From Vibrio aerogenes (GTDB taxonomy: Bacteria > Pseudomonadota > Gammaproteobacteria > Enterobacterales > Vibrionaceae), in the NCBI RefSeq assembly GCF_024346755.1, contig NZ_AP024861.1, forward strand, positions 1,240,001-1,304,000: a stretch of DNA of 64,000 nucleotides, given 5' to 3'. Both the position numbers and the translations under genes were made by a program. The notes beneath the pieces are model-generated. The model did no database searches. It was not told where the DNA came from and was given only the letters and a program-made list of their open reading frames with translations. Below, piece by piece: positions 4,475-17,708 of the stretch (positions within the stretch are counted from its first letter, which is position 1; each line of letters starts with the position of its first letter).

Positions 4475-6832
4475 ATGCGTCAAGTTAAGTATCTTATGCT
4501 GCAATGGAAAATGATATTGCAATGGAAGCATTGGCTGTGGATTTTGCTTCTTCCCCTGGCAACAAATGCACTCGCTCATAAACATAAGAATGAGGTAACA
4601 GAGCTTCGCCCCGGAACGGTGATCTACCAAATTGATGCGAATGCTTCTCCGGATGATCTTAAAGGGCTCAATGCGCTGTTAAAAAGCCAGGGGCTTGTTT
4701 CAGAGCGGACACTGGAAGGGAGCCAGATAGTCATCGCAACTTTTGAGCACCATGGCCGGGAAAAAGCCATTGCTAAGATTATCGATAAGAGTGGCTACGT
4801 TGCCTTTGCTGAGCCTGACTATATTGTGCAGCCCACATTACAGCCAAACGACACTTTTTTTTCTTACCAATGGCACCACAATAATGTGAACAGTCCGCAG
4901 GCGTGGGACATCACAACCGGAAGTAACGCTGTATTAGTGGGGGTGTGTGATACAGGCTTTGATGTGAATCATCCGGATTTAGGGCCTAACCTGAGGACAG
5001 ATCTGGCTTATAACGCCAATGATGGTTCCGACTATATTTATGACGCCAACGGTCATGGAACAGGGAGTGCAGGGACATTAGGTGCTGTTGGGAATAACGG
5101 TATCGGTGTTGCTGGTGCGAACTGGAACGTGGATATTATTCCTGTCCGGATTGCGATTAGTGATCAGAACAGCTCTGCCTACATTTCGACCATGGCTGCA
5201 TGTATCGAGTATGCTGCTGACAATGGTGCCCGGGTGGTCAATCTCAGTTACGGTGGTATCCAGTATGAAACCATAGATGCAGCTGCTCAGTACTTACGTT
5301 CAAAAAATGGTTTGTTGTTTATGTCAGCGGGTAACAGCGGAGAGGAACATGATACCTATCCGGATTTTACCAGCTTTATTGGTGTCGGGGCGACCGATCG
5401 TAATGACAACCGGGCCAGTTTCTCAAGCTGGGGGACTTATGTTGATATCACCGCGCCTGGTGTGGATATCGCGACCACCTATCCGGACAATCAGTATGTT
5501 TACTACAGCGGAACCTCATTTTCTTCTCCATTAACTGCTGGGATTGCGGCGTTAATGGTTGCAGCCAACCCAGCCATTACACCGGCAGAAATTGAGACCG
5601 GGCTATTCGCGACTGCGGCAGATATCGGTGCACCAGGTGATGATAATGTGTATGGCCATGGCCTCGTCGATGCCTACGCTGCCGTGATGTATGCGACGAA
5701 CCTGAATCAGTTAGTTGCACCTGTGGCTGATATTGTGGTCAGCAGCAACTCTGTGCCATTTGGTAGCTCTGTTAACTTTGACGCTTCCGGTTCAACAGAC
5801 GGCGATGGTTCGATTGTCTCATACCTGTGGAATTTTGGTGATGGCACAACGTCAGCCAGCGTGATGGCAACGCATACTTATGCTCAGGCTGGCAGCTATC
5901 AGGTGAGCTTAACCGTGACCGATAACGATGGTTTAACTGATGCGGCCGTGACCACTATTCAGGTGACGAACGCGCTCCCCACGCCAGTACTTCAGATTAA
6001 CAACCCGGCTGACAGCTATAACATAGGTGAAAGCATCTTCTTTGTGGGTTCAAACTCAACGGATTCAGATGGCACCATCGTGAGCTACTTATGGGAGTTT
6101 GGTAATGGTGATACCAGTTCTTTATCCGATCCAGAGTACGCTTTCGCATCGGCAGGGACTTACACCGTGACGTTGACAGTGACGGATAATGCCGGTTCAC
6201 CCAATAGTACCGATGTGATGGTGACTGTGGTTGATCCGTCTGCCCTGAATGTACCCGGTGGATTAGCGGCGAGTGTTGACGGGCTGGCGGTGACATTAAC
6301 GTGGCAGGACAACAACACCAATGAGGCAGAGTATGTGGTTGAGCGGGGCGTGAAATATCGTGGCAGAATTCGTTTTGAAACTGTTGCGGAGCTGCCGGCC
6401 GATTCCACAAGCTATGTTGATACGGTGCCGGACACCGGAGATTTCAGGTATCGGGTGATTGCAAGAAACTCTGGCGACGAAGCCATATCTGAGACCATTA
6501 CTGTCACAGTCGATTCAAATACGAATCCAGAGCCTGAACCTGGCGGTTTAGCGGCACCAGATAATCTTGCTGTTACCCCAAGTGGTGTGAATATCAGTCT
6601 GAGCTGGTCGGATAATTCTGATGATGAGCTGGGTTTCTATATTGAACGCGGTTTGAAGGTCAAAGGGCAAATAGAATTTGCACTCATCGGGCAGGTTGGC
6701 GCGAATGATACCAGTTTTACAGATAGCGGGTTTAGCGCATTACCAGGTGGTAACTACTCATATCGTGTTCAGGCCTATAAATCAGGAGAGGTATCCGGCT
6801 ACAGTAATACCGTAGAAATTCGCAAGAAATAG
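4475..6832 (+). CDS. Secreted subtilisin-like serine protease (S8) with PKD and Fn3-like domains
   Basis: A 785-residue exported protease. Residues 20-34 form a hydrophobic signal segment ending ALA. An inhibitor-like propeptide follows (about 40-120). The S8 catalytic domain spans about 130-405 with Asp159 (CDTGFD), His194 (GHGTG), oxyanion Asn287 (SAGN) and Ser348 (SGTSFSSP). Two PKD domains (about 410-500 and 503-590, each with SDGDG-like and FGDG/FGNG motifs) and two fibronectin-III-like domains (about 595-785) follow. Both Fn3-like domains share an unusual ERG(V/L)K-x-(R/K)G insert. A degradative exoenzyme is the likely role. GGGAG upstream supports the start at 4475. It ends just outside the genomic island. 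Confidence 0.92.
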   Translation: MRQVKYLMLQWKMILQWKHWLWILLLPLATNALAHKHKNEVTELRPGTVIYQIDANASPDDLKGLNALLKSQGLVSERTLEGSQIVIATFEHHGREKAIAKIIDKSGYVAFAEPDYIVQPTLQPNDTFFSYQWHHNNVNSPQAWDITTGSNAVLVGVCDTGFDVNHPDLGPNLRTDLAYNANDGSDYIYDANGHGTGSAGTLGAVGNNGIGVAGANWNVDIIPVRIAISDQNSSAYISTMAACIEYAADNGARVVNLSYGGIQYETIDAAAQYLRSKNGLLFMSAGNSGEEHDTYPDFTSFIGVGATDRNDNRASFSSWGTYVDITAPGVDIATTYPDNQYVYYSGTSFSSPLTAGIAALMVAANPAITPAEIETGLFATAADIGAPGDDNVYGHGLVDAYAAVMYATNLNQLVAPVADIVVSSNSVPFGSSVNFDASGSTDGDGSIVSYLWNFGDGTTSASVMATHTYAQAGSYQVSLTVTDNDGLTDAAVTTIQVTNALPTPVLQINNPADSYNIGESIFFVGSNSTDSDGTIVSYLWEFGNGDTSSLSDPEYAFASAGTYTVTLTVTDNAGSPNSTDVMVTVVDPSALNVPGGLAASVDGLAVTLTWQDNNTNEAEYVVERGVKYRGRIRFETVAELPADSTSYVDTVPDTGDFRYRVIARNSGDEAISETITVTVDSNTNPEPEPGGLAAPDNLAVTPSGVNISLSWSDNSDDELGFYIERGLKVKGQIEFALIGQVGANDTSFTDSGFSALPGGNYSYRVQAYKSGEVSGYSNTVEIRKK

Positions 6833-6860
6833 TGATTAATAAGCAGAGAGAAAACAAAAA

Positions 6861-6886
6861 GGGCCAACCCGTGAGGGTCGGCCCTT
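6861..6886 (-). terminator. Rho-independent terminator at the distal end of the island
   Basis: GGGCCAACCC and GGGTCGGCCC pair around a GTGA loop and are followed on the minus strand by TTTTTG. It lies directly beside the left att repeat, the same arrangement as the terminator beside the ssrA 3' end at 17.3 kb. I infer that it was the original ssrA terminator before the island displaced it by 10.4 kb. It may now also stop the protease transcript. Confidence 0.75.
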
Positions 6887-6887
6887 T

Positions 6888-6902
6888 CCAAACGTTTGGT
6901 GG
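6888..6902. other. Island attachment repeat, distal copy
   Basis: CCAAACGTTTGGTGG occurs here and again at 17333-17347 in the tail of ssrA. The match continues beyond the core with GCTGGCG, offset by one base. It marks the end of the island opposite the integrase. Confidence 0.85.
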
Positions 6903-7055
6903 GCTGGCGTCATCTGAAGTTTGATTCTAATGCTTTGATTTTTAAAGATAAAGGTGTGATGAAAAATAGTTTTGGGTAACTGATTGGGTACTAAAATTTA
7001 TTATCGAAAAGTGTGACGCCAATCTGATTTGATGACGATTTTAAAGAGCATCACT

Positions 7056-7637
7056 TCACATGGGTAAGTATCCCCAGTCTTCGTAGCTTTTTCGCTTAGT
7101 TCTCTTCACAGACGTTCCTTTATTCTTTCTTTTGATAACTCTTTTCATTTTTCGGCAAAGAAGTTGAAATTGCTTCTCTACATACTCCTCATCTCTCAGT
7201 TTAGCCACTGAAGCTACTGACCAGCCTTTTAGAGTGAATTTTCTTACACGCTTAACACCGTTCTGCTCATAAAGCTCGGCTGACATTGGTGGCTCATATC
7301 CCCAATATTCTAGGAATCTCATTGTCGATTTGTCGGAATATCCTTCATTCTCACGATATTTAACTATTCTATGTACTTGTTTGAGATAGAGTGCGTGTTT
7401 GGTTGCCCTACGCTTTTCAAGTGAATTTTCAAAGTAACGTTCTATACAGTCATCGATGATGGCGGATAAATTCTCGTTTTTCCCGAGTTCATTTTCATTG
7501 AATCCCATTCTAAGTCCTATAGTACGGAGCTTATTTATAGATTCTTGATTAAGGTGGTACTTCTTTGTAACCAATCCAGACTCTTTCCTCCTATTGGTTA
7601 CATAACGCTGTCTAACTGCATCATCTGAATCACTCAT
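7056..7637 (-). CDS. Unknown basic island protein, possibly DNA-binding
   Basis: I do not recognise this 193-residue protein. Residues 20-70 (KKYHLNQESINKLRTIG, then an acidic linker and LSAIIDDCIERYF) have the strand-helix-helix pattern of ribbon-helix-helix regulators. The C-terminal third is very basic (KRVIKRKNKG and more). WGY occurs twice, near residues 111 and 188, in similar surroundings, hinting at an internal duplication. It is divergent from alpA, and the 226-bp gap holds three palindromes that could be its operators. A repressor or plasmid-copy-type regulator is plausible but unproven. Confidence 0.5.
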   Translation of the reverse strand: MSDSDDAVRQRYVTNRRKESGLVTKKYHLNQESINKLRTIGLRMGFNENELGKNENLSAIIDDCIERYFENSLEKRRATKHALYLKQVHRIVKYRENEGYSDKSTMRFLEYWGYEPPMSAELYEQNGVKRVRKFTLKGWSVASVAKLRDEEYVEKQFQLLCRKMKRVIKRKNKGTSVKRTKRKSYEDWGYLPM

Positions 7638-7863: not shown

Positions 7864-8100
7864 ATGCTGAGTGAAAGGTATTTAAAAATAGAGGAAGTTG
7901 TGAAAGTAACTTCTTATAGTCGTGCTCAGATATATCGACTAATGAAATCAGGAGAGTTTCCGAGTTCGTATAGATTATCGAAGAATCGAGTTGCATGGAA
8001 AGAAACAGAAATACGCAATTGGTCAGAAAACAGAAAGAGCACAACTCTAATGGTTGAGTTAGACCGCTCTCAGAAACTATTGAAAGAGGTTTGGGGATAA
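7864..8100 (+). CDS. AlpA-family transcriptional regulator / excisionase-like protein
   Basis: A 78-residue MerR-like winged-helix protein. YLKIEEVVKVTSYSRAQIYRLMKSGEFPSSYRLS is the typical AlpA pattern: helix-turn-helix at residues 6-28, wing at 30-45, then the WKETEI motif. AlpA proteins in P4-like elements activate integrase transcription or help excision. The stop overlaps the next start by one base (TAATG), so the two genes are translationally coupled. The upstream palindromes could regulate it. Confidence 0.85.
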   Translation: MLSERYLKIEEVVKVTSYSRAQIYRLMKSGEFPSSYRLSKNRVAWKETEIRNWSENRKSTTLMVELDRSQKLLKEVWG

Positions 8101-8945
8101 TGGTAAGTGTGATTGATCTTCCTAGCTACAGTCTTGATGAATGTAGCTGGCTATCCAGTGAACATGATGCGTATGAAGAGAATGATTATCGGATCGCATT
8201 GTTACGCGAGTTGGCTGATGAAGTGTATCTAAACAGAGGAAGACGTTATTCGACCGGAGATTTACATGAGTTGGCGGACAAACTAGAAGCGTGTAACGAG
8301 GAGATCATTGCGTGCAAAAGCTTGGCATGTAAGAAGTGCAATCGAAAATTCAAGATCGAAAGAGTGAACGATATCGTCTCTGCGATGAAGCTAGAACAGG
8401 AGCATGGGTTAGAATTTGAGTACGGTATCTACACCATATTGCAATACTCTCGCTCTGTGAGTGCATATGCTTTTATTGATTATGATGTACCTAAAGATAA
8501 AGACCGTATCCGAAAAATTCTCTCAAGATGTGGAGTGATTGGTCCTGTAGTTGGGTCTTTTGAACTTGATTTTCATGAAAAACCTCAAAGATGGTTGACG
8601 CATTACCATCTCCTAATACGCCAAACAGGGAATGAAGACGCTATCAGTGAACTCAAGAGTCGTGTACAGAAATTACATCCTATAAACATAAAGAAAAATA
8701 GGTGTGCTAGACCATTTATGGAGCAAAAGTTAAGTGATGCACACGAGCAACTCAGTTACATCCATAAATTAACAAGTTTTGAAGTTAGAGACTACAAGAC
8801 TCTTTTTGGTAAGAAAAGAACTCATAAGCACCGACTTAATAAATTGATGTTTTGTGAGTCTCTTTGCTGGCTAGATGGGCTAGATAGAAGAACCTTGCCT
8901 TTTCAATGGCATGCAAGAGCGTGGCTAAAGCAGTCCAAAGTGTAA
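8100..8945 (+). CDS. Island protein with HUH-endonuclease-like motifs (YagK/YfjJ or inovirus Gp2-like)
   Basis: A 281-residue protein if the ATG at 8100, which overlaps the alpA stop, is used; a TTG at 8091 is also in frame. After a helical N-terminus, Cys-x-x-Cys lies near 77-80. LTHYHLL at about 166-172 places two histidines around one aromatic residue, as in the HUH motif of rolling-circle replication proteins, and YIHK at about 220-223 fits the Y-x-x-K catalytic pattern. The context and the HYHLL block resemble the YagK/YfjJ family, found beside alpA in E. coli cryptic prophages, and inovirus Gp2. I infer a replication or nicking role for the excised island. The large aromatic residue between the histidines is atypical. 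Confidence 0.55.
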   Translation: MVSVIDLPSYSLDECSWLSSEHDAYEENDYRIALLRELADEVYLNRGRRYSTGDLHELADKLEACNEEIIACKSLACKKCNRKFKIERVNDIVSAMKLEQEHGLEFEYGIYTILQYSRSVSAYAFIDYDVPKDKDRIRKILSRCGVIGPVVGSFELDFHEKPQRWLTHYHLLIRQTGNEDAISELKSRVQKLHPINIKKNRCARPFMEQKLSDAHEQLSYIHKLTSFEVRDYKTLFGKKRTHKHRLNKLMFCESLCWLDGLDRRTLPFQWHARAWLKQSKV

Positions 8946-8991: not shown

Positions 8992-9187
8992 AAATTAGCA
9001 CTTTTAAGGAACATCCACTTCAACACTAGTCATCTTTTCATGACGAGTAAGTGAAGAAGAATTCAGGACACTCTCTTAAAATCATCTTCCACTAGCACAA
9101 ATCGGCTTAACCACGAATATCATTATATAATCGAGAGGCAGCACTTAACTGACACCAAATATCTTATTACGCTCTTATGGCTAATTG

Positions 9188-9511
9188 CTATAGTTGAAAC
9201 CTCGTAAGACAGAACCAATCATTGTCCGATAAACATTGATATAACCCAGTCTGCCAAGAGTTTTTATTATTAGCTCTATGACTTACTGCCGTTTCCCTCA
9301 AGAAGCTACGTAATTCTTCTCCACCACTGACTTCGTATACTCGACGCATCATAAACTCCATTCCAGCAAGCTCTTCTGCTGCGTGAGAAGCATATAGTTT
9401 TGCGAGCTTAAATGTTTCAAAATGATGCTCAATTCTGGTTTGAGTTAGGGGCTCACAAGCGTTTTCTGGATCAATAAAAAACTCGATATTGACGGGAATC
9501 CTTGTGTCCAC
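9188..9511 (-). pseudogene. 3' fragment of the HNH nuclease gene, separated by the IS
   Basis: The frame here codes for the last 105 or so residues (from TRIPVNIEFFI to the stop) of the HNH protein whose 5' part lies at 11172-11696. GTGGAC on the minus strand occurs at both IS borders in the same frame, so removing the IS plus one copy restores one uninterrupted frame of about 280 residues. An ATG at 9538 inside the IS could start translation of this fragment as a 116-residue chimera. It contains no catalytic motif, only helical segments. Confidence 0.75.
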
Positions 9512-9549
9512 GGTGTTTTTCAAGATAGTTGTCATCATCTGCTTAATAT

Positions 9550-10650
9550 TTAAGCTGCTTTTTCTTCGTCAATTTCTGGTGTTTTGTCCGGGTTTAATTC
9601 AACCTTACCAACTGGCTCACAGTTCCTGATATTTCCTGACCAGCGCGCTGGATTCGCCTCTCGGTGTAACATCAAGACCTGTTTGCGGTTTTCTAAAATC
9701 TGTTTGTCTTTTCCATGATGACGCTCATCTGGCGTCACGTAATTGAGCGCACTGTGTTTGTGCTCCGTGTTATACCACTGAACGAATCGCTCTACCCATT
9801 CTCTGGCATCGTTCAGACTTCTAAATCCATTTGATGGCCATTGCGGGATATATTTCAACGTCCGGAACAGCGATTCCACATAAGGGTTATCATTACTCAC
9901 CCGCGGACGGCTGTAAGAAGAGAGCACGCCAAGCTCTTCCATTTTTGCTTTCAGTGTCAGGGACTTCATCGGGCTGCCGTTATCTGAGTGCAGGACCAAC
10001 GCCTGTTGAAAACATTTTTCCCGGAACACTGTCCGTTGCAATAATTCTGACGCCAACTCACCACATTCGGTTTCATGCACCTCATAACCCACGATTTTCC
10101 GGCTGTAAATATCTTCAATCAGATACAGGTAGTAAAACTGACCACGTACCGTTGAAGGCAGATAGGTGATATCCCAGGTGTGGACCTGATTTGGCTGTGT
10201 CGCAGTATAACTCGTTGGTTTTACAACTTTTTGTCGGCTCTTCTGGCGACCTCTCCCGGTCAGCTGTCCTGCTGCTTTTAAGACCCGGTAAAAACTCGAT
10301 TCACTGGCAATATATTCTCCTTTATCCAACAAGGCCGGAACAATCTGCGCGGGCGGCAGACTGGCATATTCTGCAGTATTACAGATGTCGATAATCGCCC
10401 TTCGTTCCTGCTCTGAAAGCTTGTTGACCGGCGCCGGTCTCAATGCCTGTGGTCTTTGATCGGCCTGAACCTTTCCACCCTGATACCAGCGGCGGTAAGT
10501 CCGTAAATCAATCTGCGCTTCATCACAGGCTCTGATTAACCGGCAACCACTCTGGCAGGCTTCATGGATCAGTGCTATGAGACTTTTCCTGTCTTCGGTT
10601 GAGGTCAGTCGTCCCCGGGATCTTCCCCGTAAAAGGCTCTGAGCTTTTTT
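9550..10650 (-). CDS. IS3-family transposase OrfB (made by -1 frameshift from OrfA)
   Basis: This is the catalytic half of the transposase. The frame is open from the slippery site at about 10650 to the stop at 9550, with no ATG near its beginning. The rve integrase core carries the DDE triad: first Asp in TWDITYLP, second in LHSDNG, Glu in YVESLFRTLK. An HTH_21-like region precedes it. The product is expected as a fused OrfAB of about 519 residues. The shorter ORF starting at a TTG (10443) misses about 65 upstream codons that are clearly part of the frame. Confidence 0.85.
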   Translation of the reverse strand, partial: KKAQSLLRGRSRGRLTSTEDRKSLIALIHEACQSGCRLIRACDEAQIDLRTYRRWYQGGKVQADQRPQALRPAPVNKLSEQERRAIIDICNTAEYASLPPAQIVPALLDKGEYIASESSFYRVLKAAGQLTGRGRQKSRQKVVKPTSYTATQPNQVHTWDITYLPSTVRGQFYYLYLIEDIYSRKIVGYEVHETECGELASELLQRTVFREKCFQQALVLHSDNGSPMKSLTLKAKMEELGVLSSYSRPRVSNDNPYVESLFRTLKYIPQWPSNGFRSLNDAREWVERFVQWYNTEHKHSALNYVTPDERHHGKDKQILENRKQVLMLHREANPARWSGNIRNCEPVGKVELNPDKTPEIDEEKAA

Positions 10651-11108
10651 CTCAGCACCAGTAAAGCTGCAGTTTCAGCGAGTGCTTTTTCTTTATGTCG
10701 CAGCTCTTTTTTCAGGGCTTTGATTTCCTGTTTATCGGCCTTTGCCTGTTTTTTCGCTTCCGCTTCCCTTTCTTTAGCCGACATAAAGCCCTGCATACAT
10801 TCACTGCGCCACTGATGAACCTGCTCAGGGTACAGGCCTTTTTCACGGCAGTACTGACTGAGCTCTGCTTCAGTCATAGAAAGGGTGTCGGCAACAACGG
10901 CCAGTTTGGTTTGTGCGGACCATTGTGAAGATGAAGTATGACTGTCTGGCAAAACGACTCCTGATTCTCTGAATGCTTTTCGCCAATTGTACAGGGTTGC
11001 TTCACAAATCCCTTCTTCTTTTGCCAGTTGAGCGACAGAAAGTGAATGTGGGGGTAACATTTTTTTCAGGATCGCTTCTTTTCTTTCTGGTGAATAGCGG
11101 GTCATCAT
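10605..11108 (-). CDS. IS3-family transposase OrfA
   Basis: A 167-residue DNA-binding subunit. The helix-turn-helix (SVAQLAKEEGICEATLYNWRK, about residues 23-44) recognises the IS ends; a second HTH-like region and a long charged coiled coil (about 110-150) follow, as in IS3 OrfA leucine-zipper regions. The A-AAA-AAG heptamer at 10650-10644 is in the zero frame (AAA AAG) and is the classic -1 frameshift signal. Slippage leads directly into the open orfB frame. Confidence 0.85.
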   Translation of the reverse strand: MMTRYSPERKEAILKKMLPPHSLSVAQLAKEEGICEATLYNWRKAFRESGVVLPDSHTSSSQWSAQTKLAVVADTLSMTEAELSQYCREKGLYPEQVHQWRSECMQGFMSAKEREAEAKKQAKADKQEIKALKKELRHKEKALAETAALLVLRKKLRAFYGEDPGDD

Positions 11109-11171
11109 TCCTCTTTAACCTCCCCTATGACTGGTTAATTTTTAACAGTGGCAACTATTCTGACAGAGGGG

Positions 11172-11696
11172 GTCCACAAGCTTAGCTTTCAACCAAGAAA
11201 ATCCTTCCACATCATCATAATATGGATGAAGAGTCTCTTCATGCGCATACCTTGGAATACCTTCGCTTTTTGTTTTATTGCAATCCTGACAAGCGGGTAT
11301 TAGGTTTAGTGGGGAAACAACAAGAGTCGGATAATGTGCTTTCGGTAAATGGTGATCCAAAGTAGAAACGGTTCTTTGTGAACAAAGAGGGCACTTACCA
11401 AAGAGGGGTAACGACATTAGTTTGTCATAGTATTCACGGCCAGGAGCTAGCTTTTTGGCCATCCTGTTTGTATATACTTTTTTCATCTCATCGGTAGTGA
11501 CTCCGTTGGACATATTACTTGGTTGCATTGTGTGAAGCATCGCTTCGCCAACTTTGCTATCAAACTCACGTGAGGCATCATGTATTTCTTGTTTACATGC
11601 TTCAAGACGTTGTTTTAAGCCTTGATCCTTAATTCGCTCAATACACTTTTCAAATACGGCAATAGTGTCATCTAAAGGTTTCTCAAGCCTCCTCAT
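11172..11696 (-). pseudogene. HNH endonuclease gene, 5' part, truncated by the IS (PtuB-like)
   Basis: This 5' part codes for 175 native residues, then reads nine residues into the IS before a stop. The treble-clef HNH is complete: Cys102-x-x-Cys105, LDHH at 113-116, and NLIPAC-x-DCN at 131-140. The N-terminus is helical. It is the third gene of the operon, 12 bases after the AAA ATPase, an arrangement like the ptuA-ptuB pair of Septu. Loss of the last 105 residues may or may not abolish function, since the active site is retained. Confidence 0.75.
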
Positions 11697-11708
11697 CTTT
11701 AATCTCTC

Positions 11709-13226
11709 TTAGTTAAATCGTGTTCTTAGAATTCCCTTTGCTTCCACGCCAAGCTGGCCTCCGAAACTATCTAGAGCTTCTTCGTAGCTGCCGTATTGTT
11801 CAGCAGCTTCATTGAGAAGACTGTGGAAACCTGACGCTGTATGTTCTAAGCCAAATACTTCCCTTGTTAATGTCCCAACATTTTCACCGAATGATTCCAT
11901 TTCCAGTCTTTCAGCTTTAGCAATTCTGCCATTTCTCCACAGTCTCCAAGCACAACTCCACGGAACTTCTTGAAGGACTACTGGAGAATGTGTAGCAATT
12001 ATTGAAACTGCATTTCGGTTGACAAGTAGATCGGACAATGAGCGGATAAACGCAGAGAGCAAAGGTGGATGAAGATGGGCCTCTGGTTCATCTAAAAAAA
12101 CTAAGCTCTTTTCTTCGATCGTTTCTACCAATCGAGTTATTGTTAACAATACTATCTTGTGGCCAGAGCTTAAGTTTTTAAAAACTCTACCAGCTATGTC
12201 TTTAAACTCATCTTCGTTTTGAAATCTAAGAATTGCAGAGACATCTATGCTCATAAACACAGGATCTGACTCGAGCTTTTTTATGGCACTTTTCCAGCGT
12301 TCAATTTTGTTTCCTGCTTTACACGCTAGAACACTCTTCAAAAATTCATTTTTCAGAATTATTGGACTCTTAGGGGGAGGAGGACTTTCGTTAGCTTTAC
12401 GCACGCGTTTTAGTCCTACATAAGAAAACTGGATTCCGGATGATTTATCTTTTCGTTCCGGTAGTGGTTCCGTTTCATCAAAAGCACTAAAAGTTACAGA
12501 AACAACGTTTGAAAACAGTTCACCATTTAAAAATTCATCTAAGGATGAAAATGTCCCAACTTTGTTGGTTTTAGCATTTTCATCAATAATGGAGCTGATC
12601 ATGTTATTGATTAAGTGAGTTTTACCGACGCCATTTCGACCTATCAATACATGTATATTTGTAGGAGGGTTGCTTTCTGGTTTTACATCAAAGGTCAACT
12701 CTAACGCTTCTGTATTATCAGACTTTTGTTTGGGAGCATTGTATTTAAAAGAGTATGCTGAGAGCCTTGCTCCACCGTTTGCCAACCTTCGAAATTGCCC
12801 TTTGATCGAGGTCACACTAACAGAGCGTAGAAGAGAAACACTAGTTACTCTTTCTTTCATTGCTATTTCAAAACTATCTTCACTTAATGCAATGTCATTC
12901 AATGCGTTGAGTATTATTGAGCGTTTTTCTTCACCTAGTTTGTTCAGTTCGTCATAATAGCTATCATCTTGGCCCAAAGAAAAAAAACTGTTATCCAGGT
13001 CGCTAAATTTGTTTGGAAGATCTGGTCGACGTTGATCTTTAACCATGTCAACTTGGCCAACTTTAGTGGAGCCTATTTTATGATGCTCTAGATTGTTGTC
13101 TACATAAGCTATTGCATAAACAGTAGAAAACTCAAACCAATCATCCCAGTTATCCTCATAAAGATATACAGTATCACGTTGTAGAGCAGGTAAAGAGCTC
13201 GAACTGGGTACTATGATAAAGTCCAT
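11709..13226 (-). CDS. ABC-type AAA ATPase, PtuA/RecF-like, middle gene of a putative defence operon
   Basis: A 505-residue ATPase of the AAA_21/SMC-like class. Walker A GRNGVGKT is at 196-203, the ABC signature NLSSGHK at about 351-357, Walker B LVFLDEPEAHLHP at 375-387 and the H-loop ATHSPVVLQE at 411-420. The N-terminal 190 residues are an unrecognised domain. I see no TOPRIM nuclease, so it is not a GajA/OLD-type enzyme. It starts 9 bases after the GHKL gene stops and ends 12 bases before the HNH gene, which indicates one transcript. ATPase plus HNH recalls Septu; the GHKL-nuclease partner does not belong to the classical pair. Confidence 0.8.
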   Translation of the reverse strand: MDFIIVPSSSSLPALQRDTVYLYEDNWDDWFEFSTVYAIAYVDNNLEHHKIGSTKVGQVDMVKDQRRPDLPNKFSDLDNSFFSLGQDDSYYDELNKLGEEKRSIILNALNDIALSEDSFEIAMKERVTSVSLLRSVSVTSIKGQFRRLANGGARLSAYSFKYNAPKQKSDNTEALELTFDVKPESNPPTNIHVLIGRNGVGKTHLINNMISSIIDENAKTNKVGTFSSLDEFLNGELFSNVVSVTFSAFDETEPLPERKDKSSGIQFSYVGLKRVRKANESPPPPKSPIILKNEFLKSVLACKAGNKIERWKSAIKKLESDPVFMSIDVSAILRFQNEDEFKDIAGRVFKNLSSGHKIVLLTITRLVETIEEKSLVFLDEPEAHLHPPLLSAFIRSLSDLLVNRNAVSIIATHSPVVLQEVPWSCAWRLWRNGRIAKAERLEMESFGENVGTLTREVFGLEHTASGFHSLLNEAAEQYGSYEEALDSFGGQLGVEAKGILRTRFN

Positions 13227-13235
13227 TGTTTTGTC

Positions 13236-15206
13236 CTATGCGCTTTTTTCTTGTAGATCTGTTACGAGATCTTCGGTACTTTCCTGCGACAAGTCATCTA
13301 ATTTGATGTTGAGGCGATCTAAAAGATAATTATTTGACAAATCGAACTCGTCAAAAATAGTGTACCAATCCTTGACATAACATTTAATTTTGTCGTCGTA
13401 AGTAACAAGGCCAAATTCAGCTTTATCTTTTAAGTTGTTCATTCTTTGTTTAATTTGAAAGTCATCCTTTGATATTTTTCTTCCAATTAGTATGATTTCA
13501 AAAAACATTTTTGAACTTGCAAAAGAAGGGTGCTTCGCAATTATTTCACAATAGTCATCTACTTGCTGGAGGTGCTTTTTATTTAATGATACGCCAGGTC
13601 TCTTTATTTCAACGATTACGCATTTGTATACATGCTCTCCTTTGCCGTTGAAAGCAGGGACTTTTCTTGCTAAAAATAAATCTACTTGACGGTTTACTCC
13701 TTCAACAACTAGACCATTTTCGATATCGGTATCAGAGATTATATCTATGTCTTTGACTTTATCTCTTAGATTTTTGGCAATTGAAGTAAAAGAATCTTCT
13801 TCTGCTCCTAAAGTCGTATATTGGGGACCAAATAACCATGTATTGCTTTCGATAATCTTTTGCAAGTCAGGGGTTTCAAGCACTTCTGAGAATCTACAAT
13901 CCATTACCTCTCTAAGTTGATGGATTGCTTGTTGTCTTCTTTGTAGTATTTCAATAGTACTGACAATATTCTCAAACGTAGTTTTTTTAAGCTGTTGTGC
14001 TAATTTGTTAATACTCTGTGTGTTTAAGTCTAATACACCATCAAGAACTTCTAGTATTGTGTCGTTTTCATTTGATACCAATACTTTATCTAACAGTCTA
14101 ATAAGAACCTTAGCAGGTTTTGCACTTAGTCTGTTAAATACTTGAGGATCGGCAAGATATATATCTTTGATTACTTTCTTAGTGTTTGATTTTCGCCACT
14201 CAGCGTATTCTTCATCTACACCAGAATATATAGGGAAATAGCCTTTGTTATCGAATCGTTCGATTTCTTCATCAACAAATTTTCTTAAATAATCGCTATA
14301 TATTTCTCTCTGAAATGCAGTCATTTTCTCTAAGAGAGATCTGATGATTTTATTGTTTTTCTGAGCCTCAGGATCTAAATCTAGTAATTCAGGTTCATAA
14401 CTTTCAAACCATGGTGAAAACGCATAAGCACTCGTATAAAAGGAAACTTTATTATTTGACTTGCTTAGGTATTTTGAAACTATCCGGTTACCATCTTCAA
14501 CTAGGTAGTTGTGAGATTTTTCAGAGCTTGGTTTATCATCCCAACGCAAAACAGATATGTTGAAGTCCACACTGTTGATGGAAACAGTTTTACGATGTAG
14601 TTCATGTTTTGGTATTTCGATGGTTCTACCATTCAGTAAGATTTTACGATCTGTATTGAGAGCTAAGTACCAACCGAATTCCTTACTTAACTTTGAAGAC
14701 AGTTCCTGTTCTAAAGGTATTTTTTTGTTAAATTGTGAAAGAACGACACATGTTCCTGAGACATAGTTAGTTAAAGCTGGGTGCTGATCATTTTTGTCTA
14801 GATAGGTACCATCATAATCTCTGATAGAGTCAGCTTTAATACTAATCTTTGCATCATAGTTGTTTTTTTTGGTGTACCAACATGCAGAGCCACACATCAC
14901 ATGGAAAGCTAAGCGTCCTTTCCCTTGTGATCCATGCTTATCGTCATTGTTCTTTTTTGTAGATTCATTGAATTTTTCGAAACTACTCTCAAGACTTTCT
15001 AGATCAATACCATCTCCATCATCTTGTATCTCGATGAAATCCAATCCATCCATATCGTTGTAATGGGTGTTTACTTCTAATGTGCGAGCATTGGCATCAA
15101 AACCATTCCAAACTAGCTCGAAAATGGCGTTGACTGGTTCAAAATTTTTGAAGTGTTTTTTGACACCAATATCTGTAATAGCAGCAGTACCATGAAAAGA
15201 TTGCAC
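13236..15206 (-). CDS. GHKL ATPase (Hsp90/MORC-like) fused to a Shedu-like PD-(D/E)XK nuclease
   Basis: A 656-residue protein, first gene of the three-gene operon. The N-terminal GHKL ATPase shows the N-box around Asn34 and Asp37 (ELVWNGFDANA, with the catalytic-type Glu30), the G1 motif DDGDGI at 62-67, and G2 GSQGKG at 92-97. A helical middle domain follows to about 440. The C-terminus resembles the DUF4263/Shedu nuclease: SNTWLFG near 454, QVDLF with Asp509, VEIKRP with Glu533 and Lys535, and Gln548 in HLQQVDDY, the D...E-x-K...Q pattern. I infer that ATP-dependent conformational change gates DNA cleavage. It could also have been called a sensor-histidine-kinase-like protein, but it lacks any H-box. 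Confidence 0.75.
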   Translation of the reverse strand: MQSFHGTAAITDIGVKKHFKNFEPVNAIFELVWNGFDANARTLEVNTHYNDMDGLDFIEIQDDGDGIDLESLESSFEKFNESTKKNNDDKHGSQGKGRLAFHVMCGSACWYTKKNNYDAKISIKADSIRDYDGTYLDKNDQHPALTNYVSGTCVVLSQFNKKIPLEQELSSKLSKEFGWYLALNTDRKILLNGRTIEIPKHELHRKTVSINSVDFNISVLRWDDKPSSEKSHNYLVEDGNRIVSKYLSKSNNKVSFYTSAYAFSPWFESYEPELLDLDPEAQKNNKIIRSLLEKMTAFQREIYSDYLRKFVDEEIERFDNKGYFPIYSGVDEEYAEWRKSNTKKVIKDIYLADPQVFNRLSAKPAKVLIRLLDKVLVSNENDTILEVLDGVLDLNTQSINKLAQQLKKTTFENIVSTIEILQRRQQAIHQLREVMDCRFSEVLETPDLQKIIESNTWLFGPQYTTLGAEEDSFTSIAKNLRDKVKDIDIISDTDIENGLVVEGVNRQVDLFLARKVPAFNGKGEHVYKCVIVEIKRPGVSLNKKHLQQVDDYCEIIAKHPSFASSKMFFEIILIGRKISKDDFQIKQRMNNLKDKAEFGLVTYDDKIKCYVKDWYTIFDEFDLSNNYLLDRLNIKLDDLSQESTEDLVTDLQEKSA

Positions 15207-15931
15207 CGACGTTTCCTCTGATTGTACTTATTATCTTTGTATCATATGTAACAGAGTTATTTTGTCACTTATCTGTAGACGATGGAAACAAAATTACCTT
15301 ACAGAATCTTGATTTAGATCTCATTTTTGGAATGTTCACATTTTGTGAAATGTTGTTTGAGATTTATATAAAAACCTTGTGTTTTTTAGTTGGATAGGCT
15401 TTTAATATTGTTATTAAAGTAGGGAGGCGTTAATCAAAAATTTAACAAAGGTTTTCAGTAACTAAAAGCCGTTGTGTTCATATTGGAGTAACGCTGTTTA
15501 ACGGTAGTCTTAAGATAAACGAAAGAGCTAAAACTACTAAGCTATTCGGCGGCTATATCACTTCGCACAACAACTTTCCCTTACAAGTAAGCTAAAAATA
15601 TTGTGCTAGCTTGTGTTTGTGGCTACATGGAACTCAGTTAATTTAATTCATTTTTCGTTAGAATTTGCGTAGTTCTTTCATGAGTTCTCATATTAAATGC
15701 TTTGTTGAAATGTCCAATAATTATCGGTACTACTGTAAGAGTTACTTAAGTATAACTTTAAGCTTGGTAGAGGTCTCACTACCTACTTTGGTACATTTCA
15801 CTTAAGAGACAATGTGAGACATTGAAAATTGCAAACTTCATTTAGCTCTTTGATTCTGGTTGTTATTGTTCATCAAGGCGTATGTTGAGGTTTAATGTCT
15901 GTTTATTTGTTACATTTAGGTGAACTATTAC
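15207..15931. other. AT-rich non-coding stretch between the operon and the integrase
   Basis: About 725 bases with no frame I can support. It must hold the promoter of the leftward GHKL-AAA-HNH operon. The end near 15810 contains an imperfect palindrome around AATGTGAGACATT. I see no tRNA, CRISPR repeat or clear small RNA. A non-coding RNA partner is possible but unsupported. Confidence 0.4.
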
Positions 15932-17155
15932 TCATGCCACAATTGCCAATGGCACCTTTGTGCTCGATGCGTTAACAATATGCGTACTCCACCAATCCAT
16001 TAGCTCTCTTCTGCGTTCAAGGTAGTCTGTGCGGCTATATGCGCGATGTGTATCGCTACCGATAAGGTGAGCAAGAGAAGCTTCAATTAAAAAGTAGTCG
16101 TGTCCAGCTTCATTTAGCGTTGAGCTAGCGATGGATCGAAGCCCATGAGAAACCAATCGACCACCAAACCCCATACGCTTGAGAGCCATATTAGCTGTTT
16201 GGCTATGCATTGGTTTTTTAGGATCTTTTATTGATGGAAAAACATATTCACTATTTACTTTCATTGAATCCATTATGCTTAACAGGCGGATAACCTCTTC
16301 TGTCAAAGGCACTCGGTGTTCTTTGCGTTTTTTCATTCTTTCTGAAGGTATTGTCCAAACTCGATTATCTAAATCGAATTCTGACCATTTAGCTCCAGCT
16401 GCTTCATTGGGTCTGGTCATGGTGTGTAGTTGAAACTTGATTAGGCATCGTGTAGAACGCTTAATACTCGCTTCAGCTAGTGTAGTCATTAATTCCGGTA
16501 ATTCTTGTGGTTCTAGTGCTTTCATGTGCTGTTTCTGAGGCTTTTTAAAAGCAGCTAAGATGTTGCTTATTGGATTTGCCTCAATTAGTCCGCTGTGCAT
16601 AGCGTAAATCATGACTTCATTTAGTCGTTGAGATAATCGTTTCAGGGTTTCTAAAGAGCCTTTAGCCTCTACCACCTTTAGTGTTTTGATCACAGACTGA
16701 GCCGTAATCATAGAGATAGGTTGTGAGCTCAAAGATGGAAAAACATGCAACTCAAATGAGCGCCAGATATCCTTTGCGTAATCTTCAGTTACTTCTGATT
16801 TCTTTTGTTCCATCCACTGCTGTGACACATTGAAAAGCGTGTGCTGATGTATAGCCTCGGTTTTTTCCTTCTCTGCTTGTTTGTGGAGCTTTGGGTCAAT
16901 GTCTAGTGCTACTAGCTCACGGTGGCCTTCTGCTATTTTTCGCGCATTAGCTATCGATAGTTCTGGGTATTTGCCTAAGGTCATATTGCTGCGTTTTCCC
17001 GTAGCAGGACTCTTGTATACGAAACGCCAAGACTTAGTTCCATTTGGCATTATTCTAAGCTGAAGTCCTTTCCCATCACTGGCGATTGTCTCTTTGCCTG
17101 CGGGTTTAAGGCTTTTTACTTTTTTGTCTGTCAGTGGAACTACACGTCTTCCCAT
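15932..17155 (-). CDS. Tyrosine recombinase, P4-like integrase of the island
   Basis: A 407-residue integrase with the DUF4102 arm-binding N-terminus (LTDKKVKSLKP, then ASDGKGLQLRI), a SAM-like core-binding domain (about 105-200), and the catalytic domain with Arg in MTRPNEAAGAKW (about 243), HGLRS (about 338) and the nucleophile Tyr in THRAYSRTDYLERRRELM (about 370-376). It is located 187 bp from the 3' end of ssrA and would catalyse insertion and excision between the two 15-bp repeats. Its own start is followed upstream only by the att region, so expression may respond to AlpA. Confidence 0.93.
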   Translation of the reverse strand: MGRRVVPLTDKKVKSLKPAGKETIASDGKGLQLRIMPNGTKSWRFVYKSPATGKRSNMTLGKYPELSIANARKIAEGHRELVALDIDPKLHKQAEKEKTEAIHQHTLFNVSQQWMEQKKSEVTEDYAKDIWRSFELHVFPSLSSQPISMITAQSVIKTLKVVEAKGSLETLKRLSQRLNEVMIYAMHSGLIEANPISNILAAFKKPQKQHMKALEPQELPELMTTLAEASIKRSTRCLIKFQLHTMTRPNEAAGAKWSEFDLDNRVWTIPSERMKKRKEHRVPLTEEVIRLLSIMDSMKVNSEYVFPSIKDPKKPMHSQTANMALKRMGFGGRLVSHGLRSIASSTLNEAGHDYFLIEASLAHLIGSDTHRAYSRTDYLERRRELMDWWSTHIVNASSTKVPLAIVA

Positions 17156-17334: not shown

Positions 17335-17347
17335 AAACGTTTGGTGG
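17333..17347. other. Island attachment repeat, ssrA-proximal copy
   Basis: CCAAACGTTTGGTGG identical to 6888-6902. It overlaps the last six bases of tmRNA, including CCA, so integration leaves tmRNA intact. Confidence 0.85.
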
Positions 17348-17708
17348 AGCTGGCGGGAGTTGAACCCGCGTCCGAAAACCATCCATCTTTGGCGCTACAT
17401 GCTTAGTCGATCTTTAATTTCGCTACCCACCTGCGAACCGACACGCGAATGAATAACTAACCTGAATTAGATCTCACGCTTCATCTCTCAGGTGGGAGAA
17501 TCCACGCCAGCTTGATTGGGTTTGACCTTCCTGATTCCCCGTCCTACAAGCGGAGGCTAGGGAGGAAGGGCTCTGAGCAGGTTATTAAGCTGCTAGTGCG
17601 TAGTTTTCGTCGTTTGCGACTATTTTTTTGCGGTTTGTTAACGAGGCCTACCGCACCTCGGCATGCTCCTCAGACTGCAGTATTCCCGTCGAATCCTGAA
17701 TCAGCCCC
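17342..17708 (-). ncRNA. ssrA: tmRNA (transfer-messenger RNA)
   Basis: A 367-base gene reading leftward. The 5' end GGGGCTGATTCAGGATTCGA (17708 downward) and the 3' end with T-arm GGGTTCAACTCCC, then AGCTCCACCA, form the tRNA-like half. The tag reading frame at 17617-17585 encodes ANDENYALAA followed by TAA, the gammaproteobacterial degradation tag. tmRNA rescues stalled ribosomes with SmpB, whose gene is 1.3 kb away. The 3' end overlaps the island att site. Confidence 0.97.

What the first reader, a model, noticed from the sequence alone, without database searches (positions are those of the whole stretch)
11172..15206. Three-gene GHKL-nuclease / AAA ATPase / HNH operon, a possible undescribed anti-phage system
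Seen: one operon (gaps of 9 and 12 bases) on an ssrA-integrated island, encoding a protein with GHKL ATPase motifs plus a D...E-x-K nuclease-like tail, an ABC-type ATPase, and an HNH nuclease. Known: ATPase+HNH is the Septu (PtuAB) layout; DUF4263 nucleases define Shedu; MORC/Hsp90-like ATPases occur in bacterial defence. Inferred: the combination joins parts of two defence systems and adds a GHKL gate. I know no named system with this set. Two nucleases and two ATPases in one module would be unusual.
Basis: partly seen in the sequence, partly recalled or inferred. Interest (0 to 1): 0.88.

Follow-up and report, generated by a model that had tools for sequence, protein, structure and literature searches.

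The report
GHKL-nuclease gene ahead of Septu pair
A Vibrio genomic island carries a gene that looks like a known DNA-cutting anti-phage protein (GHKL ATPase plus nuclease-like tail) packed closely ahead of a Septu-type ATPase–HNH pair whose last gene is broken by an insertion element; both halves resemble known phage defences, and their joining is rare.

Summary

The three genes are not an obligate set. Of 34 distinct GHKL alleles examined only the window/V. sagamiensis one has the pair within reach, and most pairs lack a GHKL gene. Most likely: two separately working defence modules in one transcription unit. A coupled system (GHKL sensor, PtuAB effector) is not excluded. Nothing here tests function.

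The parts
13236..15206 (-). GHKL ATPase with helical middle region and C-terminal D...ExK nuclease-like tail; paraMORC3 / VcSduA-type layout
   Evidence: (E30, N34, D62/G64/G66, G92/G95/G97, G151/T152 and D509, E533, K535 invariant in 43 rows; assignment to GHKL motifs I-IV is mine)
11709..13226 (-). PtuA-type AAA/ABC ATPase (PDC-M01A; lambda Ea59-like)
11172..11696 (-). 5' part (about 175 codons) of the PtuB-type HNH nuclease gene (PDC-M01B); keeps the HNH core, loses the C-terminal helical part; the open frame runs on into the insertion to 11142
9189..9511 (-). detached 3' part of the HNH gene
   Evidence: 97.5% to V. sagamiensis L001 14030-14352
9512..11171 (-). IS3-type insertion element (OrfB 9550-10443, OrfA 10605-11108) flanked by GTCCAC; exact ends by inspection
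15207..15743 (-). leader upstream of the GHKL gene, part of the block shared with V. sagamiensis; probable promoter region (inferred)
   Evidence: promoter-like site 15268-15241; sites in the region not more than in shuffles
15932..17155 (-). tyrosine integrase of the island
   Evidence: PF00589 E 9.3e-28, PF13356 E 3.1e-24
17342..17708 (-). ssrA (tmRNA), the integration site
6854..6909 (+). imperfect repeat of the ssrA 3' end, the far attachment site
   Evidence: 48 of 57 columns identical
7864..8100 (+). AlpA-type regulator of the island
   Evidence: PF05930 E 6.1e-17

Best explanation
A mobile defence cassette in which two known, normally separate modules share one transcription unit. (1) A single-gene paraMORC3/VcSduA-type protein: a GHKL ATPase dimer that closes on DNA when it binds ATP and directs its C-terminal PD-(D/E)xK-like nuclease at phage DNA, without killing the cell. 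(2) A Septu-type PtuAB pair (PDC-M01, the group of lambda Ea59/Ea31): a PtuA ATPase assembly keeps the PtuB HNH nuclease inactive until infection disturbs it, and PtuB then cuts DNA. In this strain module 2 is probably dead, because the insertion removes about residues 176-280 of PtuB; module 1 is intact and upstream. Shown here: genes, order, truncation, family and fold matches, site. Inferred from relatives or recalled: co-transcription, DNA clamping, nuclease activity, PtuB gating, anti-phage action, independence of the two modules.
Against: The three genes are spaced like one translated unit (9 and 12 bases) and are shared with V. sagamiensis as a 4.57-kb block at 98.4%. Relatives named V. 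parahaemolyticus exist for all three (95, 96, 91%; arrangement not seen). Relatives of all three share the contig length 32,894. Another GHKL family precedes such a pair in two Agrobacterium plasmids. The nuclease fold of the GHKL tail was not confirmed and Pfam SduA_C does not match it.
Confidence: 0.6

Rival explanations
1. One coupled three-gene system: the GHKL-nuclease is sensor and first cutter, and PtuAB is its effector or amplifier, comparable to retron-Septu, where an RT-msDNA unit gates PtuAB.
For: 9-base gap and shared block; a GHKL protein 9 or 57-58 bases upstream of the pair in two GHKL families that are alike only over the GHKL part; the shared contig length 32,894, whose three proteins the trees place apart from the Vibrio set, so that 'three together' needs two changes in each tree; other large upstream partners in single loci: nSTAND-like in L038, 34 bases, type I R subunits in L019 and L026. 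Retron-Septu precedent: PMC8565338 and PMC12948488 (passages).
Against: 33 of 34 GHKL alleles, and 62 of about 66 distinct ATPase places, lack the partner in the flank read. Close ATPases stand without it: E. coli L075/L076 (71% DNA identity), G741 (74% protein), G263 (76% over residues 122-504, N-terminus missing). Upstream ORFs are varied: 16 of the 66 places have one of at least 120 aa ending within 120 bases, among them three repressor-like ones (by eye) and some probably not genes. Order on a 32,894-base contig was not seen.
Confidence: 0.25
2. Chance neighbours in a defence island, already decaying; no selected link, and no remaining function of the pair here.
For: HNH broken by an insertion; the joining is rare.
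Against: The three-gene block is intact and 98.4% identical in V. sagamiensis, leader included; the GHKL and ATPase frames are open and full-length here.
Confidence: 0.1
3. The GHKL protein is a restriction enzyme of the BbrUII/HgiDII type that has lost its methyltransferase.
For: NCBIfam BbrUII matches residues 29-288 at E 4.4e-16; nine of 43 relatives weakly match a PADLOC REase_II profile; the 2008 paper links related GHKL proteins to R-M operons (passages).
Against: 58.6 bits against a cut-off of 550, best stretch in the N-terminal half; no methyltransferase family among the nine island proteins scanned.
Confidence: 0.05

Closest known systems
VcSduA (Shedu type I-D, V. cholerae VSP-II WASA); paraMORC3 layout
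   Same: N-terminal GHKL ATPase, C-terminal ExK nuclease-type tail, single gene, carried on a Vibrio island (PMC12137116, section 12)
   Different: Direct homology not tested (its sequence was not fetched); Pfam SduA_C does not match the window protein; here it leads a close-packed operon with a Septu pair
Septu type I / PADLOC PDC-M01 (PtuAB)
   Same: PtuA-type ATPase followed by PtuB-type HNH; PtuB fold
   Different: Extra upstream GHKL gene; PtuB broken in this strain; sequence match to solved PtuB weak (E 0.35)
Phage lambda Ea59-Ea31
   Same: Ea59 39.2% identical to the ATPase over 99% of it; Ea31 is the HNH neighbour; both fall in the same PADLOC families
   Different: Two genes in a phage; no GHKL gene in the flank read
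Retron-Septu (Septu type II)
   Same: PtuAB with a third gene upstream
   Different: The upstream gene there is a reverse transcriptase; here a GHKL-nuclease; Rfam at gathering scores finds only tmRNA in the window

Membership tests
Septu (PtuAB) | PtuA-family ATPase | tested here: met
   PtuA1 E 1.5e-192, PDC-M01A E 4.9e-206; retron PtuA chains, best E 8.1e-9
Septu (PtuAB) | PtuB-family HNH nuclease directly downstream | tested here: met
Septu (PtuAB) | complete PtuB in this locus | tested here: not met
   gene cut after about codon 175
Septu (PtuAB) | anti-phage activity; gated PtuA-PtuB complex | not testable with these tools
   needs experiment
Septu type II / retron | reverse transcriptase and ncRNA upstream | tested here: not met
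   upstream neighbours are the GHKL gene and an integrase; Rfam gathering search finds tmRNA only
paraMORC3 | GHKL ATPase of MORC type | tested here: met
paraMORC3 | C-terminal restriction-enzyme-fold domain with E-D-ExK | tested here: inconclusive
   D509, E533, K535 invariant; HSDR_N_2 weak in 18 of 43; low model confidence around 370-530 and listed fold matches do not test the tail
Shedu type I-D (VcSduA) | GHKL N-terminal domain | tested here: met
Shedu type I-D (VcSduA) | SduA_C / DUF4263 nuclease domain | tested here: inconclusive
   PADLOC SduA E 3.8e-4 in the window protein, 31 of 43 relatives at E<=0.01; Pfam PF14082 not listed; profile comparison with one Shedu protein not significant
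Shedu type I-D (VcSduA) | homology to VcSduA itself | not tested
   VcSduA sequence was not fetched
BbrUII/HgiDII restriction enzymes | match above cut-off and a methyltransferase partner | tested here: not met
   58.6 of 550 bits; no methyltransferase among nine island proteins

The most novel reading that the evidence does not exclude
The Ea59/Ea31-type PtuAB pair is a plug-in effector that is repeatedly placed behind different DNA-surveillance proteins: a paraMORC3 GHKL-nuclease (Vibrio; perhaps the 32,894-base contig), another GHKL family (Agrobacterium), an nSTAND-like NTPase (Janthinobacterium), a type I restriction R subunit (two genomes). The window shows the GHKL form, a GHKL-gated Septu analogous to retron-gated Septu.
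Probability: 0.2. Interest if true: 0.7.

Novelty: new variant of a known kind. Interest (0 to 1): 0.42.

Why it matters
If the halves are coupled, it would show a second way, besides a retron, to gate PtuAB, and would offer a frame for lambda's Ea59/Ea31 pair, for which the one search made (listing only, no paper opened) brought no title about its function. If they are not coupled, it is still a compact natural cassette stacking a GHKL-nuclease and a Septu module, useful for testing additive defence. I call it a variant because the arrangement was not found described; the parts are new members of known kinds.

Tried and rejected
Viral-contig scans with the single ATPase and GHKL proteins found nothing; with alignments they gave 12 GHKL loci and 40 ATPase loci, later 11 loci of the Agrobacterium GHKL family and 10 HNH loci, none with a GHKL gene and the ATPase together. 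A DNA search of plasmids for the operon found nothing. Shared contig lengths of 4,311 (GHKL-ATPase) and 3,323 (GHKL-HNH) fit chance (0.87 shared GHKL-ATPase lengths expected); only 32,894 is used. The Agrobacterium GHKL protein aligns with ours only over the GHKL/S5 part (probability 90%, profile columns 35-281). Promoter-like sites (17 against 14.5 in shuffles) and terminator-like sites (2 against 2.8) do not stand out. Literature: PDC-M01 is in two papers; passages of one were read, and it treats PDC-M01 calls that coincide with Septu as duplicates. No paper describing GHKL plus Septu as one system came up in searches; one search was too loose to tell (15,149 papers). Only open-licence PMC papers are held. 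Papers: section 12 and passages of PMC12137116; passages of PMC2292703, PMC8565338, PMC11811056, PMC12948488; the rest listings.

Limits and dropped rows: genome-search loci reach 1.5 kb beyond the match, and viral loci L068 and L069 about 0.65 and 1.0 kb downstream; some ATPase loci have little room upstream (L050, L088, L107, L085, L105). Absence holds only for that reach. The 34 GHKL alleles (E<1e-40, 44 loci) and 69 ATPase places (E<1e-60, 75 loci) are grouped by the last 150 residues; I merged repeat fetches of the window and V. sagamiensis to get 66. L026 is below that ATPase cut. 11 of the 90 plasmid records with an ATPase match were opened; 79 were not. Homolog tables show the best 120 of 582 (GHKL), of 7,911 (ATPase) and of 688 (HNH). 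In one search one of the 120 GHKL lengths (3,223) slipped in copying; it is in neither other list.

Full report
What is there. Three minus-strand ORFs are as described: GHKL 13236-15206, ATPase 11709-13226, HNH 11142-11696, with gaps of 9 and 12 bases. They lie in a roughly 10.5-kb island between ssrA (17342-17708) and an imperfect copy of the ssrA 3' end at 6854-6909, with a tyrosine integrase and an AlpA regulator. The genome appears to be a Vibrio: G765, whose operon equals that of V. sagamiensis L001, is listed as 'same genus'. The HNH gene is cut after about codon 175: the match to the V. sagamiensis gene runs to 11172 and resumes at 9511, with GTCCAC at both edges and two transposase ORFs between. 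Residues C102/C105, D114/H115, N131, C136/C139 and H157, invariant in all 28 rows, are left; the C-terminal helical part (model) is lost.

The same block elsewhere. V. sagamiensis (L001) has GHKL, ATPase and an intact 280-aa HNH. The block 15743-11172 is 98.4% identical and there starts about 50 bases behind ssrA (tmRNA 9035-9421, block from 9470), with no ORF of 100 aa or more between ssrA and the GHKL gene. Relatives named V. parahaemolyticus are 95%, 96% and 91% identical to the three proteins; their arrangement was not seen.

Are the three a set? Among 44 GHKL loci, 34 distinct alleles, only the window/V. sagamiensis allele has ATPase and HNH in reach. Among 75 ATPase loci at E<1e-60 (69 distinct by the script, 66 after merging repeat fetches), the paraMORC3-type gene is beside it only in the window and V. 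sagamiensis, and the other GHKL family in two Agrobacterium plasmids; 62 of the 69 have the HNH at E<1e-20. Loci fetched later added no further case. In 227 genomes of the genus the ATPase (E<=1e-40) is in 12 and the GHKL (E<=1e-20) in 12; three have both (G000, G765, G713), adjacent in two. In 295 genomes of the order: ATPase 14, GHKL 8, both in one, the window's. In 398 genomes of the phylum the ATPase is in 4 at E<=1e-60; in 369 of the class the GHKL is in 4 at E<=1e-40, the three others without the pair in 1.5 kb. Two family searches (89 and 2 genomes) gave two ATPase loci and one GHKL locus, none joined.

Signs of repeated joining. Of 119, 120 and 120 longest-contig lengths copied for GHKL, ATPase and HNH relatives, ATPase and HNH share 26 (a positive control; 1.0 expected), GHKL and ATPase share 2 (0.87 expected; a shared one above 10 kb arose in 2.7% of jittered lists), and all three share 32,894; no triple above 10 kb arose in 20,000 jittered lists. 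The three proteins are 68, 71 and 58% identical to the window/V. sagamiensis ones and come from the same source (lgn). That they lie on one contig, and in what order, is inferred. Trees of each gene place them apart from the Vibrio set, so 'three together' needs two changes in each (the GHKL tree is a quick one; the V. parahaemolyticus rows were labelled as triple without their order having been seen). Two Agrobacterium plasmids put a GHKL protein 57-58 bases upstream of a 52-53% identical ATPase with its HNH; that GHKL family is alike only over the GHKL/S5 part and lacks the pair on a Ti and two other plasmids, on a V. fluvialis plasmid, where it directly follows a Shedu gene, and in 11 viral contigs. 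A Janthinobacterium plasmid has an nSTAND-like protein 34 bases upstream; in two genomes a type I R subunit ends next to the ATPase (L019, L026). Against a general rule: 50 of 66 places have no ORF of 120 aa or more ending within 120 bases upstream, and the 16 that do are varied.

Reading. The parsimonious account is two defence modules in one transcription unit on a mobile block, the second disabled here. The observations above leave a coupled GHKL-Septu system open at about one in four, and the wider plug-in idea at about one in five. Anti-phage function and co-transcription were not and could not be tested here.

Noticed in passing
L030:2655-7378, L035:2837-7378: Agrobacterium plasmids: a GHKL protein with a VEFKRPG stretch in its tail, 57-58 bases upstream of a PDC-M01 ATPase-HNH pair; same layout with a different GHKL family.
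   Followed up: partly
L038:1895-7417: Janthinobacterium plasmid: nSTAND-like 1,023-aa protein 34 bases upstream of the PDC-M01 pair.
   Followed up: partly
L019:3-1448, L026:712-2208: Type I restriction R subunit (T1R_D3-like) ending next to the PDC-M01-type ATPase.
   Followed up: partly
L124:2622-6016: V. fluvialis plasmid: a Shedu gene (SduA_C) overlaps the start of an Agrobacterium-type GHKL gene, behind type I R-M genes.
   Followed up: no
NZ_CP104294.1, NZ_CP068597.1, NZ_CP082339.1, MW057783.1: Records of 48.4-48.5 kb named as plasmids of Stenotrophomonas, Paenibacillus and Salmonella, and a Campylobacter phage, carry an Ea59 match like lambda's; possibly lambda control DNA.
   Followed up: no
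L001:9035-9421: ARAGORN reads an unusual tmRNA tag (ANDNYYGSDALAA) in V. sagamiensis, against ANDENYALAA in the window.
   Followed up: no
window 4475-6832: Subtilase with PKD domains just outside the far end of the island.
   Followed up: no
window 7056-7637 and 8091-8945: Two island ORFs without a PHROGs family or a significant Pfam family.
   Followed up: partly
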